Source of the DNA: an uncultured Lentisphaeraceae bacterium
GTDB lineage: Bacteria; Verrucomicrobiota; Kiritimatiellia; RFP12; DVOR01
Length of the DNA: 64,000 bases
Assembly (NCBI GenBank): GCA_949289005.1
Contig: CASEMQ010000070.1
Coordinates: 62,001 to 126,000, forward strand
Reading direction: 5' to 3'
This document shows, piece after piece, positions 4,605 through 37,073 of this stretch. Position 1 is the first letter of the stretch, and every line of letters begins with the position of its first letter. Position numbers and translations under genes: made by a program. The notes below the pieces were generated by a model that was not told where the DNA came from, searched no databases, and saw only the letters and a list, made by a program, of their open reading frames with translations.

Positions 4605-4638
4605 ACAGAGCATTTGCTCCTTGCACACACCAAGGAGC

Positions 4639-4670
4639 GACCCCGGAGGGCATTGCCCCCGGGTTTTTTT
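4639..4670 (+). terminator. Rho-independent terminator after the surface protein
   Basis: CCCGG-A-GGG pairs with CCC-CCGGG around a five-base loop, followed directly by seven T. It lies 35 bases after the stop codon and separates the surface protein from the recN operon. Confidence 0.85.
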
Positions 4671-4712
4671 GTCCTTTTCCCGGCAATTGCGTGGCGGCGC
4701 GGGGGTGGTTTT

Positions 4713-4721
4713 TGGTATGCT
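4713..4721 (+). promoter_or_regulatory. Extended -10 promoter of recN operon
   Basis: TGGTATGCT sits just nine bases before the recN ATG, and no ribosome binding site is visible. The transcript would start at or next to the ATG. No good -35 is present at the right distance. Confidence 0.5.
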
Positions 4722-4730
4722 AGGGACACT

Positions 4731-6410
4731 ATGTTGGTGCGGTTGGCAGTTCGAAATCTGGCGGTGGTCGAGGCGGCGGAGGTGCCGTTCGGCCCGGGGC
4801 TCAACGTGATCACGGGCGAGACGGGCGCGGGCAAGTCCGTGCTGATGGGGGCGTTGCATTTGGTGCTGGGGGAGCGCGCGGAGCGCACGTTGATCCGGAC
4901 GGGGGCCGGGGAGGCGGCGGTGAGCGCGGTCTACGAGCTGGCGGACACGCGGGCGGTGGACGCGGTGTTGGCGGAGGCGGGGCTGGCGCCGTGCGAGGAG
5001 GGGACGTTGATTTTGCGGCGGACGCTCGCGGCGAACGGCACGGGGCGCATCCGGGTGAACGACGCGCCGGCGACGGCGGCGTTGTTGCGGCGCCTGGCGC
5101 CGTTGCTGACGGACATCCACGGGCCGAACGACAATCTGTCGTTGCTGGACGAGACGTTCCAGTTGCGGTTGCTGACGGCCTATGCGGGGGCGGACGCGGA
5201 GGAGGCGGCGTACGCGGCGCGGTGGGCGGCGTTGGGGGAGGCGCGGGCGCGGTTGCGTGAGGCGGTGGGGAACCCGGGGGAGCGCGAGGCGGAGCTGGGG
5301 CGACTGGCTTTCGAGGCGGAGGAAATCCGCGTGGTGAACCCGACCGCGGAGGACGGGGAGCCGCTTTTGGAGCGCCATCGGGCGGCGGCGAACGCGGGGG
5401 AGATCTTGTCGGTGGGGAACGCGCTGACGGAGCGTTTGACGGATGGGGAGAACGCGCTTTCCGAGCAACTGATGGAGGTGCACCGGGCGTTGCGGTCGCT
5501 GGAGGGGCTGTTGCCGGAGGCGGAGGCTTGGGGGGAGGAGCTGTCGGGGGCGCAGGTGCAGCTGCAGGAGCTGTCGCGGGCCATCGCGGTGCGGCTGTCG
5601 CAGGTGGAGGCGGACCCGGAGGAGTTGGGGCGGCTGGAGGCGCGGTTGGGGCAAATCCAGCGGCTGAAGCGGAAGTATGGCCCCACGTTGGAGGATGTGC
5701 TGGCGCATTGGGAGGCGGTGCGGGCGCGGCAGACGGAGCTGAACGACGCGGAGGGGGCCATCGAGCGTCTGCGCCAACGGGTGGCCGAGGCCGAGGCGGC
5801 GTTGCGCGCGGCGGGGGAGGCGTTGCGGGCGCGGCGGGTGGCGGCGGCGCCGAGGCTGTCGGCGGCCATCACGGCGGAGTTGCGGGATCTGGGGTTCGCG
5901 CAGGCGTCGTTTCCCATCGCGGTGGAGCCATGCGAGGCGGGGCCGACGGGGATGGACCGGGCGGTCTTCCGGTTCGAGCCGAACCCGGGCGAGGCGGCGC
6001 GGCCGTTGGCGGAGATTGCGTCGTCGGGCGAGATCGCGCGTGTGATGCTGGCGGTGAAGGTGATTTTGGCGCGGCACGACGCCACGCCGACCTTGGTCTT
6101 CGACGAAATCGACGCGAACGTGGGCGGCGAGACGGGGCGGCGCGTGGGGCAGAAGTTGGCGCGACTGGCGGAAAGCGCGCAGGTGCTCTGCATCACGCAC
6201 CAGCCGCAGGCGGCCGTCTACGGGCGGGACCATTTCCGCGTGAGCAAGTCCGTGGAGGGCGGGCGGACGGTGACGCGTATCGTGCGGCTCACGCCCGCGG
6301 AGCGGGTGGGGGAGATCGCGCGGATGTTGGGCGGGGGCGACGCGGCCCTCCGCCACGCGCAGGCCATGTTGGCCGCGCGGGAACCCGAACAGACGGAACT
6401 TGGCCTATGA
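4731..6410 (+). CDS. recN: DNA repair protein RecN
   Basis: SMC-like ATPase that gathers DNA ends in recombinational double-strand-break repair; cytoplasmic. The 559-residue product has the Walker A motif GETGAGKS near residue 30, a central coiled coil (about 160-370), an ABC-type signature SSGEIARVMLAVK near residue 430 and Walker B LVFDEIDANVGGE near residue 457. Length and domain order match RecN. The start at 4731 gives the canonical N-terminus (MLVRLAVRNLAVVE); the open frame upstream runs through the terminator and is not used. There is no Shine-Dalgarno; an extended -10 lies nine bases upstream. Its stop overlaps the next start (ATGA), so it heads a six-gene operon. Confidence 0.96.
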   Translation: MLVRLAVRNLAVVEAAEVPFGPGLNVITGETGAGKSVLMGALHLVLGERAERTLIRTGAGEAAVSAVYELADTRAVDAVLAEAGLAPCEEGTLILRRTLAANGTGRIRVNDAPATAALLRRLAPLLTDIHGPNDNLSLLDETFQLRLLTAYAGADAEEAAYAARWAALGEARARLREAVGNPGEREAELGRLAFEAEEIRVVNPTAEDGEPLLERHRAAANAGEILSVGNALTERLTDGENALSEQLMEVHRALRSLEGLLPEAEAWGEELSGAQVQLQELSRAIAVRLSQVEADPEELGRLEARLGQIQRLKRKYGPTLEDVLAHWEAVRARQTELNDAEGAIERLRQRVAEAEAALRAAGEALRARRVAAAPRLSAAITAELRDLGFAQASFPIAVEPCEAGPTGMDRAVFRFEPNPGEAARPLAEIASSGEIARVMLAVKVILARHDATPTLVFDEIDANVGGETGRRVGQKLARLAESAQVLCITHQPQAAVYGRDHFRVSKSVEGGRTVTRIVRLTPAERVGEIARMLGGGDAALRHAQAMLAAREPEQTELGL

Positions 6411-14141: not shown

Positions 14142-15125
14142 TCACTCCGGGCACAACTTTGCCAGCATTGTCTTCGCGTACTGCGCGAGCGTCTTGGTGA
14201 AGGTGGTGAAAAGGATGCGTTTGCCCTCGAAACCCTTCTGCCGCAACAGCCAGCGCACGCGATGGAATGCCACCACCGATTTGCCCGTCCCCGCCGCCCC
14301 CGAGACCATCACCGGCCCGGCAGCCTCGATCTCCACGGCCTTCGTCTGCGACGGGTGCAAAAACACCTGCCAATCCTCCAGCTCACCGTTCAGGAACCGC
14401 TCGCGCAATTCGTCCGTCAACACGAAATATCGCTCCCGCATTTCAGGATGTTTCTCCAACGCTTTCTCGATGGGCGAACGCTTCCGCGCCGTCTCGATGC
14501 GTTCCATCTCACGCTCGCAAGTCGTTGTCCCCTCCGCCAACTCAAGCAACATGTTCCCCACCACGAGGTCTTCGACGAGGTCGCCCTTGGCGATCTCCTC
14601 ATACGTCGCTCCCCGCACGCGGTCGACCACTTCCTCCGTCACGCCCAAGCGCAGCAACTTCTCGCGAGAAACATCCGCGAAAGGTTTGGCATCGTCCGGC
14701 AAGGCCGGTTTCCTCGCCTTAGCCAACACCTCCCGGCGCGGCTCCATCACGGACACCTTCCGAACCGCGTAGGGGACGATGACCGGCTCTTCCTCCACCA
14801 CGATTGGCAGGTTCAATGTGCCATCCTTCCATTCCAACCGGCAATTGTGCGCCCGCCGATAGGCATCGTCATGCTTGTCGGCCAACAGTAGGATGAGCTC
14901 ATCGTCCTTCCACTTGTAGGTGATGAGTCGCCAGTCTTTGTTCACCCGATAGGAATGGAGCGTCTCCTTGGAGCGACAATGGATGTTCTCCGGCTTACGC
15001 CCGGAACCCAATCGATTGCGCCGCAACTCGGTTTCCAAGTCTTCCAACTCCCAACGGATAGTCTCCGGGACACCGTCGAGCGTCTCCTTGTATTTCTTGG
15101 TCATCGTGATTTTGACTTGCGGCAT
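14142..15125 (-). CDS. RelE-like/UvrD-type helicase, truncated after motif Ia
   Basis: The 327 residues begin with a RelE/ParE-toxin-like fold (SYRVNKDWRLITYKWKDDEL, KHDDAYRRA) as found at the N-terminus of one UvrD-helicase subgroup. A spacer follows (REKLLRLGVTEEVVDRVR), then the first helicase motifs: Q-motif-like FLHPSQTKAV, Walker A GAAGTGKSVVAFHRV near residue 285, and motif Ia RILFTTFTKTLAQYAK. The frame ends at LAKLCPE. A complete helicase needs several hundred more residues (DEXQ, motifs III-VI). Only 187 bases remain before an opposing gene, and no continuation appears in any frame. It is therefore a real 3' deletion and probably no active motor remains. It starts 8 bases after the PLD-SNF2 stop, as the last gene of the restriction module. 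Confidence 0.7.
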   Translation of the reverse strand: MPQVKITMTKKYKETLDGVPETIRWELEDLETELRRNRLGSGRKPENIHCRSKETLHSYRVNKDWRLITYKWKDDELILLLADKHDDAYRRAHNCRLEWKDGTLNLPIVVEEEPVIVPYAVRKVSVMEPRREVLAKARKPALPDDAKPFADVSREKLLRLGVTEEVVDRVRGATYEEIAKGDLVEDLVVGNMLLELAEGTTTCEREMERIETARKRSPIEKALEKHPEMRERYFVLTDELRERFLNGELEDWQVFLHPSQTKAVEIEAAGPVMVSGAAGTGKSVVAFHRVRWLLRQKGFEGKRILFTTFTKTLAQYAKTMLAKLCPE

Positions 15126-15133
15126 GAAACAAC

Positions 15134-18100
15134 CTATCTGAATTGGTCTTGTTCCGGGCCCGAGAGGGCGACGGAGAGTTGGGTGACGGGGCGAGGGGGC
15201 TCGGAGGCGGCGGTGCCGGCGAGGCGAAAATCGGCCAAGACGCCGCGGAGGGTTTTGGCATAGGTCGCGATTTCAGCCTCGGTGGCCGTGTCGTGGGAGA
15301 AGGGGCGCTTGGCCAGTTGCCTGACCCACCAATTGGCGAGGCGGCCTTCGTTAAGGGCCTTGCGCACGGCGCGGACATCCGCGGCGAGCGCGGGGGCGCG
15401 TTGCTCGACGAGCGCCAGGTTGTCGCGGGCGGCGCCGAAGGTGGGCGACACCCAGGCGGGCGAGGCGTCGCGGTAGTTTGCCAACGTGGACAAGGCGTCC
15501 CAAAAGGCCTTGCCGTGCACGGCGGTCTTGTCTAGGGGCTCGTTGGGTTCGCACCGGAGCGCTTCCAGGAGCGCGGTGGGGGCGATGGCGTGCGTCGCGC
15601 CCTCTGGCGACACGGCGAGCGCCTGCGGCAAGGCGCCGATGGTGCGCAATTGGTAGGTGCCCGGGGCAATACCCGGGGCGGCGGCGCGGGCGCTCTTGGC
15701 GTTCGGCGCACGCTCGCGGACGCGGGCGAAGAGTTCAGGGTCGCGGCGAGCCAGTTCCGCGTGGAGGCCGCGCCACTTGGTGATGGCGCCGGCTTCTTCC
15801 TTGTTGCCGTTGAGGCGCTCCCAAAGTTCCGCCGGCGTGGGTTCCTCGCCTTCATCGAAGAGTTTGACGTCCTCGCCGAGGGTCTTCTGGATGTTGAAGA
15901 GTTTTTCCCGGGCGATGCGTTCGTTGCCCACCAGATCGGCGCCGCGCTTGGTGGGGAAGAAGTTGACCGTGTGCAGTTCCTCGAAGACCTTCCCACCAAT
16001 GCGATTGATGCGGCCGAGGCGTTGCAGGACACGTGTGGGGTTCCAGGGAATGTCGTAGTTGACGACCACGCCGGCGCGGTTGAGGTTCAGCCCCTCGCTG
16101 ATTTTGTCCGTGCCCAGCAGGATGTCGAAGTCGTCGCGTTGCTGCGCCTTGGGGCACGAGGCGTCGAAGTTCGCCCGCAGCTCCTCGCGCTTGGCCGTGC
16201 CCAAATCGCGCACCACGCAAACGCGCCCGGGGAAGGCCGCCTCCAACCGCTTGGACAGGAAGGCCACCGTGTCGGCAAACTCGCTAAAGATGAGTATCTT
16301 ACGCTTGGGCGCGGCGGGGTTCGAGTCCTTGAGCGCCTTCCCGGCGAGAATGTCGCGGCAGACCTCCACGAGACGGGCGGACTTCGGGTCGTTGGCCAAC
16401 AGCCCAAGGCGCTTCATCTCCTTTTGGAGGGCCCCGAAAAGCATGATGTCCGTTCTGATAGCCTCCAGGAATGTCTTGCCGTTGAAGTTCGTGCTGTCCA
16501 TGTAGTAGACGGAGGTCTTCTTGCCTCCCTCTTCGCTCTGCTTCAGCAGCTCCGCCTCGACCGCCTCGTACGCTTCCTGGAATGCCTCCGGGTCGGCAAT
16601 CTCCATCAGCTTTTCCATCGCCTCGCGGTCGTAGAAGAATCGATTCGTTTTGAGCACGAAACCCTCCGCGTTGCGATACATCGCGCACATATTCTCTAGC
16701 GACTGCGCAAAGGCCGCGAAGGAACTCTCGAAGCGCCGCACAAGCATCCGCCGCATGTTATCGCGGATGTTCCCCTGCGTGGCATCCGCCTTGGGCTTCG
16801 GCAGCATATAGTCCTCCGGCTGATAGACCGGGGCGAGCCAGAGCGGCGTAAGCCCGCCGAAGACCTCGGTGACGATGCGGTCGTAAAAGGCGTCCTGCGC
16901 GTCGTCCAACGCGAAGTATTCCCGCGTCGGGTCGCACACCTTCGAGAGCGCCGGCAACGTCTTGCGGTAAATCGGATCCTCCAGCAAATCCAGGCGGTTG
17001 CGGCGGATGGTCACCTTCTCGAGCAAATCCCGCACCTGCCCCAGGAAATGGTCATGCCGGCGCTTGATGACCTTCACGGTCTCCTCGCGCCCGCGCAGGT
17101 TCTGCGCCAGCAATTTGTCCACCCCCAGCGCCACGAGCGTGCCCAGCCCCAACGCCTGCGCGGCGGACTCCGCCGCATCCAACAGCTTCGCCCGGAGGAG
17201 CGCGGCCTGACACTCCTTCAGCCGCTTGCCGATGGCCTTCAGGTAACCCTGCAGGTCGCCGCCGTAGACCAAAGGGTTGTTCCGGAGCGGCAGGAAGAGC
17301 CCCAAAAGCGCCGCCAGATCGTCCATCCGGTTGTTCAGCGGCGTGGCCGTCAGCAACAACACCTTCCGCCCCCGGCAGATGGTCTGCAGGTCGGCATAGC
17401 CCTTGCCTTCGGCATTGCGGAAGCGGTGCGCCTCGTCCACAATCACCATCCGAAAGCCCGGATCCTCCTCCAAGTCTTTCTTCACCTTATCCAGATTGCC
17501 GCTCGAATAGATCGGCCAGCGCGTCGGCCCCAGCCCGAAGGCCTTCCGATAGCCCTCCCAGTTCGCCACCAGCCCCGGCGGGCAAAGGATAATCCCCGTC
17601 TGCCCAAAATCCGAGGCCGCCGCCACCAACATCGCGATGAGGCTCTTGCCCAGCCCCACCACGTCCGCGACAAGCGCTCCACCATACGCCTCCAACATCC
17701 CGCACGCCTGCACCACCGCGTCCACCTGATAGGCAAACTCACGGAACTTCGCCCCCTCCAGCTCCCGCTTGATCCGCGCCGGCAGGTTCACATCCTCCGG
17801 CTCCGCCCGCACCACCGTATCCAACGCCAGCGCAAACGCCTCATACGGCGACAGCGGCGCCCGCGCCCCAAGCCGCCGCGCCAGCTCCCCGGCCTCCAGC
17901 GGCACCGCCTCCTCCCACAGCCGATCGAACCACGCCTGCGCCTCCGCGTAGCCCCAGTCCCACAACTCCACGTCCAGCTCGTCCTGCGTCTCCCCCTTCA
18001 GCGCCGCCCGCGAAAAGTTGCTGCTCCCCGTGATGAGCCGCCCCTCCACCAGCCCCTCCCGATGCTCCGGCGCGGTGTGGAAGAGCCACACCTTCGCGTG

Positions 18101-18487
18101 GTTCGGCCGACGCGTCTGCCGCACCTCCAGCCGCCCCGCCGCCAGCAGCTCCGCGAAAAACGCCCGCCGCCCCGCGTCCTGCCGCGTCTCCCCGATCCCG
18201 CTCCCCAGCACCCGCCCCAACCGCGCGTACGCCTCCCCCGCCAACGCCGCGTCATCCTTCCCCGCCGTCTCCGGCGCCAACTCCACCACCTGCCCCCGCC
18301 ACACATCCGCCGCCATCCCCACCAACACCCGCAACCTCACCTCCGGATGCGCCCGCAACGCCTCCTCGAACACCTTCAGCCCCGAGAACCAGAAGAACCC
18401 CACCAGCACATCCACCCGGTCCACATACCTCAGCGCCGCCTCAAAGCGCTCCCTCAGCACCCCCTCGCCATCGCGATACAGCAACAT
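15134..18487 (-). CDS. PLD-SNF2 helicase of a restriction-modification-like module
   Basis: The 1117-residue protein joins a phospholipase D-type nuclease domain to a Swi2/Snf2 ATPase. Residues about 125-160 hold one HKD-type site (NHAKVWLF then GSSNFS). The helicase has Walker A DVVGLGKSL near residue 280, DEAH (VIVDEAHRF) near 350, LLLTATPLNN, and the C-terminal lobe LLGTDKISEGLNLN with VLQRLGRINRIGG near 790-830. A long insert between the lobes (about 400-760) may bind DNA or the methylase. ATG 18487 follows GAGGAGGAGG and lies one base after the methylase stop; the longer frame upstream is Arg-rich shadow. Probably the DNA-translocating, cutting arm paired with the adjacent methylase. Confidence 0.85.
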   Translation of the reverse strand: MLLYRDGEGVLRERFEAALRYVDRVDVLVGFFWFSGLKVFEEALRAHPEVRLRVLVGMAADVWRGQVVELAPETAGKDDAALAGEAYARLGRVLGSGIGETRQDAGRRAFFAELLAAGRLEVRQTRRPNHAKVWLFHTAPEHREGLVEGRLITGSSNFSRAALKGETQDELDVELWDWGYAEAQAWFDRLWEEAVPLEAGELARRLGARAPLSPYEAFALALDTVVRAEPEDVNLPARIKRELEGAKFREFAYQVDAVVQACGMLEAYGGALVADVVGLGKSLIAMLVAAASDFGQTGIILCPPGLVANWEGYRKAFGLGPTRWPIYSSGNLDKVKKDLEEDPGFRMVIVDEAHRFRNAEGKGYADLQTICRGRKVLLLTATPLNNRMDDLAALLGLFLPLRNNPLVYGGDLQGYLKAIGKRLKECQAALLRAKLLDAAESAAQALGLGTLVALGVDKLLAQNLRGREETVKVIKRRHDHFLGQVRDLLEKVTIRRNRLDLLEDPIYRKTLPALSKVCDPTREYFALDDAQDAFYDRIVTEVFGGLTPLWLAPVYQPEDYMLPKPKADATQGNIRDNMRRMLVRRFESSFAAFAQSLENMCAMYRNAEGFVLKTNRFFYDREAMEKLMEIADPEAFQEAYEAVEAELLKQSEEGGKKTSVYYMDSTNFNGKTFLEAIRTDIMLFGALQKEMKRLGLLANDPKSARLVEVCRDILAGKALKDSNPAAPKRKILIFSEFADTVAFLSKRLEAAFPGRVCVVRDLGTAKREELRANFDASCPKAQQRDDFDILLGTDKISEGLNLNRAGVVVNYDIPWNPTRVLQRLGRINRIGGKVFEELHTVNFFPTKRGADLVGNERIAREKLFNIQKTLGEDVKLFDEGEEPTPAELWERLNGNKEEAGAITKWRGLHAELARRDPELFARVRERAPNAKSARAAAPGIAPGTYQLRTIGALPQALAVSPEGATHAIAPTALLEALRCEPNEPLDKTAVHGKAFWDALSTLANYRDASPAWVSPTFGAARDNLALVEQRAPALAADVRAVRKALNEGRLANWWVRQLAKRPFSHDTATEAEIATYAKTLRGVLADFRLAGTAASEPPRPVTQLSVALSGPEQDQFR

Positions 18488-18488
18488 C

Positions 18489-20807
18489 TCACGCCTCCTC
18501 CTCGTCGTCCGAGACCGCGTCAGAAACCGCCGGAGCCTCCGCCCGCTTCTCACGCTTCGCAAACGACCGCTCCACCAACGCAATCTCCTCCCCCGTCAGC
18601 CCATACAGACGATACACCACCGCGTCAATCTCTGCTTGCACATCCTCTCCCGCCTCCGCGCGCTTCACCAATGCTACCAGCGCATCCGCGTCCGCAGACG
18701 CCAATGCCGCCTCGGAGGGAATAGGAAGCTCCACCAATTCATAGAGATTGACATGGTTGTTGGTGGACGTGGTACGGAAAACCCAGTCCAACAGCCGCGA
18801 ATTCAAGAGCCCGACTGTAAGTCGGGCCCTTCCTGGACTCGGCAAATATGCAATATTTGCCGAGTGCAGGAAGACGATTCTCGTCTTCCTGCACTCGGCC
18901 CTGCACGCATGGATACGGAAACGATCCGTCGTCCCCGTGATGTTCTGGCAAACGACGGCCTCGCCCTCCGTGTTTTCCTTCGCAAGAGCCTTGACGTAAC
19001 CATTCTCTTCGCCATACATCAGGGCATCATCCAACAGATAACGATGGATGTTTTCGCCCTTGGCAATCCGAATGGAGGTGGGCGTGTAAGACCGAATGTC
19101 GTCGAGGTAAATCGTGTTGATATTGCCCTGCCGTGTTCCAGTCAAGATTGTGGAGAGCGGGCGGAACTGTGTTTTCATCTTGAGGAAGATGTTCCCCTCT
19201 CCCGAATGCAACAATGGAAACTCCAGGTTGCGCCCGCCCTTGAGGAGGTCGCCTTGCGCCAGATAGGCGAACTGCGGGGCGGTCACGGAGGCGAGCGTGT
19301 TATGGATGGAGAGTGCGAAGGGCTCGTCGTCTGGGGGGGCTTTGCGGAAAAAGGCGATGCAAGTGCCCGTGAGGACGCTCTTGAAGACCTTGACCTCCGG
19401 GTCGTCGGTGTCCTTGGGGAACTCGATGACTTGGAGGAGTCGCGTGTTGCGAAGGAGGAGTTCGCGGGTGGCAGTGGAAGAGAGGTCGCACATGAGCGAG
19501 CTCTGGACGATGAGACAGACCACGCCGTTTTGCGTGGCGAGGTTGTAGCCGTGTTCCACAAAGACCTTGTAGAGATTTTGCTTGCCCTTGTCTTTGCCTT
19601 CCGACCACGGGAACTGGCGAGCGGAGTACTTACCCTTCTTCTCCTGCACATACGGCGGGTTGCCGATGACGATGTCGAACTTGTCGATGCTGAACATCCA
19701 CTGAGAGTCAAAGATGGGGGAGGGGGCGGTGGGGTCGTAGGGATCCCAATTGGCGAGGAGGTCGACGCCGGCGAGGTGTTGGGAGCGGAAGTAATCTTGG
19801 ATTTGGGTGCGGAGTTGGCGGTCTTTGGCGCGGAGTTCCAGTTTTTTGGCGCGGGTGTGGGCTTGGATGTAATCGGCGCGGAGGGTTTTGAGTTCATCGC
19901 GCCAGGCCTCGACGTGCTTGGGGATGAGGTAGTTTTCGCCGTCATTGAAGCCGATGAGGGAGTTTGCGATGACGAGGTGGGTTTCGAGGTTGGGGAGTTG
20001 GTCGAGGCCGTGGTTGGGTTCGTTTGGCTTGACGGTTTGGTCGCAGAGGAGGGAGATGAAGAAGCGGAGTTTGGAGATTTGGATGGCGATGGGCTGGATG
20101 TCGACGCCGTAGATGGCCTGGGTGATGAGGTGGAGTTTGCGCTCGTAGTCGGGGCGGGGGTCGCCAAGGAGGCCGAGGAGTTCGACCATGCGGTTGAGGA
20201 GGCCCATGGGGAAGGCGCCGGAGCCGCAGGCGGGGTCGATGGTCTTGAGGGATTCGAGGCGGGCGCGGAGGGCGGCCTTGACAGGGGCGGGGAGGGCCTC
20301 GATGGCGTCGGCGTCGTTGCCGAAGAGGCAGTCGAGGGTGGCGGCGTCGGCGGCGGGGGCGAGCGCGGCGCGGAGGGCCTGGTCGACCATGTAGTCGACG
20401 ATTTCGCGGGGGGTGTAGAAGGAGCCGGAGGCTTTGCGGGCGGAGACGCCGGTCTCGGGGTTGTAGGAGGCGAGGAGGTTTTCAAAGACCTTGCCGAGGA
20501 GTTCGGGGTCGAGGGCGATGTCGGCGTCGGAGGCGTGGTTTTCGTCGATGGTGAAGTCGTAACGTTTGAGGAGGGGGAGGAGGCCGGCGGTGCCGAAGAA
20601 GAGGCGGTTGGGGAGGATGGCGCGGCTGTCGGCGCGGCGGGAGAAGCCGTCGCGGTAGACCTTGCGGTGGTTGTCGGCCTCGTCTTCGGTGTCGAGGCAC
20701 TCGAAGAGCCCGCCGTTGAGATAGGGAACGGAAGCGAAGACCTTTACGACGCGCTCATGCGGCAGCCTGAACCAGGATTTGCCAACGAGGGGGGGGGGTG
20801 GTATCAC
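18489..20807 (-). CDS. Eco57I-type adenine-N6 methylase, C-terminal frame (out of frame with its N-terminus)
   Basis: This frame carries the catalytic core of a large Eco57I/PglX-like DNA methyltransferase. It has the SAM-binding TIDPACGSGAFPMGLLNRM, the catalytic NPPY (DIVIGNPPYVQEKKGK), and a target-recognition region containing QNITGTTDRFRIHAC and TSTNNHVNLYELVELPIPS. There is no independent start with a ribosome binding site. It continues the protein begun at 21792 once one C is removed from a C10 tract at 20789-20798. Together the two frames give about 1100 residues, a usual length for this family. A triple palindrome at 18809-18899 lies inside the coding sequence. The stop is one base before the helicase start, so the two are translationally coupled. 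Confidence 0.85.
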   Translation of the reverse strand: MIPPPPLVGKSWFRLPHERVVKVFASVPYLNGGLFECLDTEDEADNHRKVYRDGFSRRADSRAILPNRLFFGTAGLLPLLKRYDFTIDENHASDADIALDPELLGKVFENLLASYNPETGVSARKASGSFYTPREIVDYMVDQALRAALAPAADAATLDCLFGNDADAIEALPAPVKAALRARLESLKTIDPACGSGAFPMGLLNRMVELLGLLGDPRPDYERKLHLITQAIYGVDIQPIAIQISKLRFFISLLCDQTVKPNEPNHGLDQLPNLETHLVIANSLIGFNDGENYLIPKHVEAWRDELKTLRADYIQAHTRAKKLELRAKDRQLRTQIQDYFRSQHLAGVDLLANWDPYDPTAPSPIFDSQWMFSIDKFDIVIGNPPYVQEKKGKYSARQFPWSEGKDKGKQNLYKVFVEHGYNLATQNGVVCLIVQSSLMCDLSSTATRELLLRNTRLLQVIEFPKDTDDPEVKVFKSVLTGTCIAFFRKAPPDDEPFALSIHNTLASVTAPQFAYLAQGDLLKGGRNLEFPLLHSGEGNIFLKMKTQFRPLSTILTGTRQGNINTIYLDDIRSYTPTSIRIAKGENIHRYLLDDALMYGEENGYVKALAKENTEGEAVVCQNITGTTDRFRIHACRAECRKTRIVFLHSANIAYLPSPGRARLTVGLLNSRLLDWVFRTTSTNNHVNLYELVELPIPSEAALASADADALVALVKRAEAGEDVQAEIDAVVYRLYGLTGEEIALVERSFAKREKRAEAPAVSDAVSDDEEEA
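18809..18899. repeat. Triple palindrome inside the methylase gene
   Basis: Three hairpins follow one another. GCCCGACT/AGTCGGGC is at 18809-18827. GGCAAATAT/ATATTTGCC is at 18841-18861, extendable to 21 pairs with one mismatch (18829-18849 with 18853-18873). GCCGAGTGCAGGAAGACGA pairs perfectly with its complement at 18859-18899 around loop TTC. A 15-base unit CTTCCTG(C/G)ACTCGGC occurs three times in alternating orientation (18829, 18859, 18885), so the second and third hairpins exclude each other. The frame stays open through all of it. Confidence 0.9.
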
Positions 20808-21792
20808 AATCGCGGAAGAGGGTATTCACGCCGTAGGTCTTGGACTTGCCTTGGAAGGCTTTGTCGTCGGCGAAGGCGCGTTGATCCACGGGCTGGTTGA
20901 GGGTGGCGAAGAAGAGGTTTTGGAGGATGGCGTTGTAGTAGGTGCCGTCTTCGGCGGCGGAGGGCACAAAGTCGCGCAAGAGCTCCTTGCCCAGCCATTT
21001 GTCGTCAAAGAGGTCGTCGGGGACGAGGCCGCGCTCGCGGACGAACCAGACGAACATGAGGCGGGTGATGAGGCGGATGAGGTGCTCCTTGGTCTTGGCC
21101 AGGTCGACCTTGCCGTCGGCACCTACCGCGTCGGGGAAGCGCACGCCGGTCTTGGGCTCGGCGGCCCACTCGTACCAGCCATACAGCTCGTCGTAAAACT
21201 CCTTGGTGAGGGCCTCGACGGAGAAGCGGGCCAGGAGCGAGCGCGCCCCGCCACGAGCCTTCTCGCCGGGGCGGCCGAAGACGGTGACCTTGGTGCCGTC
21301 AAAATACTTGCGGAAGGTTTGGTTCTTGGCGGGGTCGTCCACCAGGAGGAAGGACTGGCGCTTGTAGTCGGTGGCCGCCTGGTCGCGCGGGGTGACGAGG
21401 GAGAGGCGGGTGCGGCGCTCGGCGTCCGAGCGGAAGAAGAAGAGCGCGCCCGGCACGTCCTCGCCGCCCACGCCGCCGCCCCAACGCTTGATGATGTGCT
21501 TGGCGCAGGCGAACTGTCCCTTGCGCTGGGCGCCGCGGCCGATCCGCGCCGTCGCCACCAGGAAGACCGGCAGGGCCACCTTGGCGCCGTCGTCCGTCGC
21601 CCACGCCAGCGTCACATAGCCCAGCCGCTCGGCCCTGGAGACCCCCGCCCGCAGGAAGAGCGGCTCCGACAACGGCAGGCTCAACGTCTCTTCCGCGAAG
21701 GAATCGAAGGTCGCCCGCACCCACTTCAGCACGTTCGCGCGCGAAAACGCCACCACCAAACCATCCGTCGCCGCCAGTTGCTCCATCGCCAT
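20755..21792 (-). CDS. Eco57I-type methylase, N-terminal frame, interrupted at a C10 tract
   Basis: This is the 5' part (about 336 native residues, then 8 out-of-frame residues and a stop) of the adenine methylase that continues at 20807-18489. The N-terminal domain (AFSRANVLKWVRATFDSF, YDELYGWYEWA, LITRLMFVWFVRERGLVPDDL) is the helical region usual before the catalytic core of Eco57I/PglX-like enzymes. I see no PD-(D/E)XK nuclease motif. Reading ends 35 bases after ten C; with nine C the frame joins into LVGKSWFRLPHERVVK and the protein continues. ATG 21792 follows AAGGAAGGA. A strong promoter lies 24-53 bases upstream. It is either phase-variable and caught OFF, or a sequencing indel. Confidence 0.8.
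   Translation of the reverse strand: MAMEQLAATDGLVVAFSRANVLKWVRATFDSFAEETLSLPLSEPLFLRAGVSRAERLGYVTLAWATDDGAKVALPVFLVATARIGRGAQRKGQFACAKHIIKRWGGGVGGEDVPGALFFFRSDAERRTRLSLVTPRDQAATDYKRQSFLLVDDPAKNQTFRKYFDGTKVTVFGRPGEKARGGARSLLARFSVEALTKEFYDELYGWYEWAAEPKTGVRFPDAVGADGKVDLAKTKEHLIRLITRLMFVWFVRERGLVPDDLFDDKWLGKELLRDFVPSAAEDGTYYNAILQNLFFATLNQPVDQRAFADDKAFQGKSKTYGVNTLFRDCDTTPPPRWQILVQAAA
20789..20798. repeat. Homopolymer tract (ten G on +, ten C on the coding strand) at the methylase frameshift
   Basis: The coding strand reads ACC-A followed by ten C and TCGTTGG. Nine or twelve C keep the gene in frame; ten do not. Tracts of this length slip during replication and are the standard switch of phase-variable methylases. 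Confidence 0.9.

Positions 21793-34136: not shown

Positions 34137-37073
<2,937 letters not shown>

What the first reader, a model, noticed from the sequence alone, without database searches (positions are those of the whole stretch)
20755..21792. Adenine methylase interrupted exactly at a C10 tract: likely phase-variable
The coding strand has ten C at 20798-20789. With ten, the frame stops after PPPRWQILVQAAA; with nine, it reads straight into LVGKSWFRLPHERVVK and the catalytic core. Poly-C/G tracts switch many methylases by slipped-strand mispairing, including pglX of the Streptomyces Pgl system. In the OFF state the downstream helicase would also be affected through translational coupling.
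Basis: partly seen in the sequence, partly recalled or inferred. Interest (0 to 1): 0.8.

Follow-up and report, generated by a model that had tools for sequence, protein, structure and literature searches.

The report
Phase-variable methylase among many poly-C/G switches
A DNA-modifying defence gene in an uncultured Kiritimatiellota bacterium is cut in two by a run of ten C that very probably lengthens and shortens to switch the gene on and off, and its genus carries dozens of similar switches on other defence genes and in front of cell-surface protein genes.

Summary
In detail: ten C at 20798-20789 (coding strand) join the N-terminal part of an Eco57I-type adenine methylase to its catalytic part in the wrong frame; nine or twelve C would join them. 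Two congeneric orthologues (75% and about 50% identical over the catalytic part) have a homopolymer at the same place, but of G (G10, G9), and are also out of frame, by different amounts. Relatives outside the genus keep one uninterrupted frame without a C/G tract there. The part beyond the break is under purifying selection (dN/dS 0.18), so it is not a dead gene. Genome-wide, C/G runs of 10 or more number 26 against about 0.4 extrapolated. Other tracts break a type III Mod, a second Eco57I methylase, HKD-SNF2 helicases and large surface proteins. About 30% sit between the -35 and -10 of sigma-70-like promoters, mostly at a total spacer of 17, mainly ahead of PEP-CTERM (exosortase-sorted) protein genes. 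Best reading: slipped-strand phase variation of a methylase/HKD-SNF2-helicase defence operon, one of many contingency loci. Length variation within a population was not observed. The methylase resembles phase-variable type IIG genes; the PEP-CTERM promoter switches appear new.

The parts
20789..20798 (-). C10 homopolymer, frame-breaking tract; full-length frame at 9 or 12 C
20755..21792 (-). N-terminal ORF of the methylase as assembled (345 aa, 331 aa upstream of the tract); stops about 14 codons from the tract start
   Evidence: collinear with residues about 1-330 of uninterrupted homologues
18489..20807 (-). catalytic and target-recognition part (open frame from GTG 20807; no ATG/GTG/TTG near the break in the G005 orthologue)
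   Evidence: Eco57I PF07669 E 5.9e-29, N6_Mtase PF02384
20211..20237 (-). SAM-binding motif DPACGSGAF
   Evidence: sequence; nearly invariant in alignment A1
19650..19661 (-). catalytic motif NPPY of N6-adenine methylases
   Evidence: sequence; nearly invariant in A1
18495..18503 (-). putative Shine-Dalgarno GAGGAGGAG for the helicase, inside the methylase 3' end
   Evidence: sequence
15134..18487 (-). HKD (PLD-like)-SNF2 helicase, 1117 aa, ATG 1 nt after the methylase stop; 76% and 69% identical in G005 and G015
14142..15125 (-). truncated third gene of the operon (UvrD-like helicase that stops about 70 residues into the helicase domain); longer in G015 (L040)

Best explanation
The C10 tract is a contingency locus. 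Slipped-strand mispairing during replication changes its length; 9 or 12 C give a full-length (about 1100 aa) Eco57I-type N6-adenine methylase, other lengths stop translation shortly after the tract (OFF, as assembled). The tract lies in a loop between the N-terminal part and the methylase domain that is naturally variable in length in the family, so a short Pro (or Gly, in relatives) run is tolerated in the ON state. The methylase forms an operon with an HKD-SNF2 helicase, presumably a restriction-type anti-phage system; switching would change genome methylation and phage restriction in subpopulations. It is one of many poly-C/G contingency loci in this genus. Shown: tract, frame relations, orthologous tracts, purifying selection, genome-wide excess. 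Inferred: actual switching, methylation, restriction, effect on the helicase.
For: Tract at the homologous place in all three congeneric orthologues found (10, 10 and 15 nt after the LFRD codons; C10, G10, G9) and in none of the other NGGLF-bearing homologue loci; ON lengths differ (9/12, 8/11, 8/11), all three OFF. One continuous ORF in homologues. dN/dS of the catalytic part G000-G005 0.18, N part 0.34. C/G runs >=10: 26 seen, 0.4 expected. Runs >=10 flanked by coding on both sides: 9 frame-broken against 2 in frame (7 against 2 without the methylase itself); runs of 5-7: 65 against 1165. Other tracts break a type III Mod, an Eco57I MTase and HKD-SNF2 helicases. An orthologous surface protein is ON at G9 in G000 and OFF at G10 in two relatives. 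32 of 108 runs >=9 lie in promoter spacers against 8 of 2342 runs of 5-7. Loop variable in length in the family.
Against: No reads or same-species strains were available, so length polymorphism was not seen. All three assembled alleles are OFF. The assembly looks like a MAG (71 contigs, 94% complete) of unknown read type, and homopolymer length can be miscalled. Only 3 of 17 genus genomes carry the gene. In the G015 comparisons dN/dS is higher (0.5-0.6), partly because the target-recognition region differs.
Confidence: 0.85

Rival explanations
1. Assembly or sequencing error: the real tract has nine C and the gene is simply intact.
For: Homopolymers are the commonest place for indel errors (general knowledge); 7 of 43 runs >=9 in this assembly lie within 150 bp of a contig end against 0.4 expected.
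Against: Three separate assemblies each carry an out-of-frame tract at this place with different base and different needed shift. The presence of the tract, which is the unusual thing, does not depend on its exact length. G005 and G015 contigs carry SPAdes-style NODE names, suggesting short-read data.
Confidence: 0.08
2. Plain pseudogene caused by a frameshift in a mutation-prone run.
For: Out of frame in all three assemblies; the third operon gene is truncated here.
Against: No other stop or frameshift in about 1100 codons in three species; purifying selection on the distal part; tract conserved in position although its base changed.
Confidence: 0.03
3. Programmed frameshifting or transcriptional slippage at the tract makes some full-length protein from every tract length, rather than a heritable switch.
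For: All three alleles are out of frame yet conserved; polymerase slippage on runs of this length is possible (general knowledge).
Against: The needed shift differs between orthologues (lose 1 or gain 2; lose 2 or gain 1; lose 1 or gain 2), and both C and G runs are used, so there is no fixed shift signal. Many sister tracts lie in promoter spacers, where a frameshift has no meaning. It could coexist with phase variation.
Confidence: 0.04

Closest known systems
cj0031 (type IIG R-M gene) of Campylobacter jejuni NCTC11168, poly-G phase-variable (PMC4889913)
   Same: Adenine methylase split into two ORFs by a G9 tract between conserved parts; length change restores one frame; other homologues lack the tract
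   Different: cj0031 is a fused restriction-modification enzyme; here no nuclease domain was recognised in the methylase and it is paired with an HKD-SNF2 helicase; the tract sits between N-terminal part and methylase domain; C in one species, G in two; other phylum
pglX of the Streptomyces coelicolor Pgl system (PMC4365076)
   Same: Adenine methylase of a phage defence system switched by a G tract (8 to 7 G)
   Different: Not a PglX equivalog (best scores about 59 bits against cut-offs of 400 and 500); no other BREX/Pgl genes among the neighbours scanned
Akkermansia muciniphila homopolymer tracts (PMC3048395)
   Same: Phase variation by mononucleotide tracts suggested for a member of the wider PVC group
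   Different: 17 genes with tracts over 8 bp, capsule genes stressed; no methylase or promoter-spacer tracts mentioned in the passages read
Phase-variable promoters of Neisseria and Bordetella with homopolymers in the promoter region (own knowledge; leads PMC1891110, PMC5320596, PMC2791445, abstracts only)
   Same: Tract length alters promoter spacing
   Different: Here the controlled genes are mostly PEP-CTERM (exosortase) proteins, many per genome

Membership tests
Homopolymer contingency locus (phase-variable gene) | Long tract in the coding region whose length decides the frame | tested here: met
Homopolymer contingency locus (phase-variable gene) | Tract over-represented and kept by selection | tested here: met
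   orthologous tracts and genome-wide excess
Homopolymer contingency locus (phase-variable gene) | Reversible length variation seen within a population or between strains of the species | not testable with these tools
   no reads or same-species genomes; only between-species differences seen
Eco57I-type N6-adenine methylase | Eco57I/N6_Mtase domain with SAM motif and NPPY | tested here: met
Type IIG restriction-modification enzyme (fused nuclease) | Nuclease domain in the same chain | tested here: inconclusive
   N-terminal part: no Pfam hit and only a weak type IIG profile hit, E 3.5e-4; fold not tested, structure job did not finish
BREX PglX | Score above PglX equivalog cut-off | tested here: not met
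   catalytic part 58.8 bits, cut-off 400; an uninterrupted homologue L047 reaches only 76 bits
DISARM class 1 (DrmMI, DrmD, DrmA, DrmB, DrmC) | DrmD equivalog next to DrmMI | tested here: not met
   helicase 136 bits against cut-off 610; DrmMI profile only 44.6 bits
DISARM class 1 (DrmMI, DrmD, DrmA, DrmB, DrmC) | drmA, drmB, drmC nearby | tested here: not met
   no such hit among the flanking ORFs scanned; in L039 and L040 only methylase, helicase and a UvrD-like gene recur

The most novel reading that the evidence does not exclude
The genus of this genome (uncultured Kiritimatiellota) has a large set of contingency loci of two kinds built on poly-C/G: coding tracts that switch defence and surface genes, and tracts that span the -35/-10 spacer of sigma-70-type promoters and switch many PEP-CTERM (exosortase-sorted) proteins and large signal-peptide proteins on and off through spacer length (17 optimal). 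The promoter element is concentrated in this genus, present at lower numbers in its order and nearly absent elsewhere in the phylum.
Probability: 0.8. Interest if true: 0.75.

Novelty: new member of a known kind. Interest (0 to 1): 0.62.

Why it matters
It gives strong comparative evidence for a phase-variable methylase in Kiritimatiellota, a phylum for which the paper library returned nothing together with 'phase variation'. A tract kept in place while its base changes from C to G points to selection for instability itself. Together with the promoter tracts ahead of PEP-CTERM genes it suggests that these bacteria vary defence, methylome and cell surface in subpopulations, which can be tested directly on existing metagenome reads.

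Tried and rejected
First codon model trained on longest ORFs was misled by antisense ORFs in this GC-rich genome; replaced by one trained iteratively from known genes. Structure of a tract-free homologue: single-sequence model useless (mean pLDDT 33); the alignment-based job had not finished. BREX and DISARM membership rejected on cut-offs and gene content. Literature: phase variation with Kiritimatiellota, no paper; with PEP-CTERM, four papers, of which only the Akkermansia one was opened; exosortase with homopolymer/phase-variable, none of the six listed held 'exosortase'. No same-species strains or reads could be reached, so length polymorphism could not be tested.

Full report
Observation. 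The coding strand has exactly ten C at 20798-20789. The frame that enters from the ATG at 21792 stops at 20755 after ...TTPPPRWQILVQAAA. The frame that leaves the tract runs to 18489 and holds the Eco57I/N6 methylase domain with DPACGSGAF and NPPY. Nine or twelve C join the two into about 1100 aa. In 13 homologues checked, both halves align in order to one ORF, and 77 homologue ORFs of 950-1450 aa with the NGGLF anchor are uninterrupted.

Relatives. The window lies in a 2.36 Mb, 71-contig assembly. Two genomes of the same genus carry the gene; they appear in the public set as uncultured Kiritimatiellaeota MAGs, L039 and L040. Both have a homopolymer at the same place, but of G: G10 and G9, 10 and 15 nt after the LFRD codons (10 in the window). 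Both are out of frame. The lengths that would restore the frame are 9/12 C in the window, 8/11 G in G005 and 8/11 G in G015. Among 100 NGGLF anchors scanned in the fetched relatives, only these two orthologues have a C or G run of 7 or more in the linker. In the family this linker varies in length, so a short Pro or Gly run should be tolerated.

Not a dead gene. Between the window and G005 the catalytic part has dN/dS 0.18 and the N part 0.34 (simple Nei-Gojobori, probably overestimated because of GC bias; comparisons with G015 give 0.4-0.6). Neither part has another stop or shift in the three species. In G005 the distal frame opens only four codons before the tract and has no ATG, GTG or TTG there.

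Genome-wide setting. Runs of exactly 7 and 8 C or G number 194 and 24 in this genome; a geometric extrapolation gives 3 runs of nine and 0.4 of ten or more, while 17 and 26 are seen. A codon-usage frame test was made on stretches from four genomes. Among runs of ten or more with coding sequence on both sides, the frame changes in 9 and is kept in 2 (7 and 2 without the methylase itself); among runs of 5-7 it changes in 65 and is kept in 1165. Genes broken by tracts include a type III Mod followed by its Res (L194), a second Eco57I methylase cut just after NPPY (L197), HKD-SNF2 helicases with a tract at the same place in two genomes (L148, L221), and a ResIII protein (L168). A large surface protein has G9 just after its signal peptide in this genome (ON) and G10 in two relatives (OFF); all three would be ON at 9 or 12.

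Promoter tracts. 32 of 108 runs of nine or more lie between a TTG-type -35 and a TAnnnT -10, 18 of them at a total spacer of 17; for runs of 5-7 it is 8 of 2342 (Fisher p about 1e-38). Of 29 proteins examined downstream of such tracts, 23 end in PEPTALALLALGxAGxALRR or a close variant, the PEP-CTERM signal of exosortase systems, and four are 1256-1505 aa proteins with signal-like N-termini, of which three are 42-48% identical to one another (two further ones are cut or short). The genome has 32 PEP-CTERM matches over the Pfam cut-off; by comparing positions, eight of them have a tract upstream. A strict G-only pattern (TTGAC, at least 8 G, TATNNT) is found in 13 of 17 genomes of the genus with up to 17 places, in about 22 of 98 others of the order with 1-5, and outside the order in only 3 genomes among those drawn from the phylum; the backwards control gave none.

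The operon. The helicase starts 1 nt after the methylase stop (TGA-G-ATG), with a Shine-Dalgarno-like GAGGAGGAG just before. It has an HKD-like motif (HAKVWLF...TGSSNFS) and SNF2 domains and is 76% and 69% identical in the two relatives. It is below the cut-off for DrmD and the methylase is below those for PglX; neighbours scanned show no DISARM genes. A third, UvrD-like gene follows; it is longer in G015 and truncated in the window.

Mechanism and confidence. The best explanation is slipped-strand phase variation of a methylase-helicase defence operon (0.85). The rivals are an assembly error (0.08), slippage-based decoding (0.04) and a plain pseudogene (0.03). What is missing is direct proof of length variation, which needs reads or strains that could not be reached here.

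Known and new. Poly-G control of an adenine methylase is known from cj0031 of Campylobacter (PMC4889913) and pglX of Streptomyces (PMC4365076), so the methylase is a new member of a known kind. The phylum, the switch of base at a conserved site, and the large set of promoter-spacer tracts ahead of PEP-CTERM genes appear undescribed in the library searched.

Noticed in passing
L161, L172, L176, L178, L181 and others in the window's genome; L184-L203, L209-L219 in relatives: Poly-C/G tracts of 9-14 in sigma-70-like promoter spacers, total spacer mostly 17, ahead of PEP-CTERM protein genes and 1256-1505 aa proteins with signal-like N-termini: probably phase-variable promoters.
   Followed up: yes
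L166 near 3991, L193 near 4114, L205 near 4009: Large surface proteins with a G tract right after the signal peptide: G9 in frame in the window's genome, G10 out of frame in two relatives.
   Followed up: partly
L194 3787-5726 and L197 3277-5512 (genome G015): Type III Mod and a second Eco57I methylase, each broken by a ten-base tract (both ON at 9 or 12).
   Followed up: partly
L148 920-4280, L221 780-4100: HKD-SNF2 helicase genes of two species with a G10 tract within the first 20 codons, both out of frame.
   Followed up: partly
window 37042-37050: C9 tract about ten codons before the stop of a 978 aa protein kinase-like gene with zinc ribbon (34137-37073, PD-T4-6/Mad6-like kinase); a length change would alter only the C-terminal end.
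   Followed up: no
window 14142-15125: UvrD-like helicase gene cut short about 70 residues into the helicase domain; the G015 relative is longer, and in G005 the 5' part is replaced.
   Followed up: partly
window 4614-6410: SMC/RecF-like ATPase similar to the MADS defence protein Mad3 (99 bits), next to a 1525 aa ORF.
   Followed up: no
G000 contigs C4, C7, C14, C56, C68, C69: Seven of 43 long C/G runs lie within 150 bp of contig ends (0.4 expected), as if assembly breaks at these tracts.
   Followed up: no
G013:C3 near 77494-77568 (L226): Run of 75 C at a contig end, probably an assembly or sequencing artefact; it inflates that genome's C10 count.
   Followed up: no
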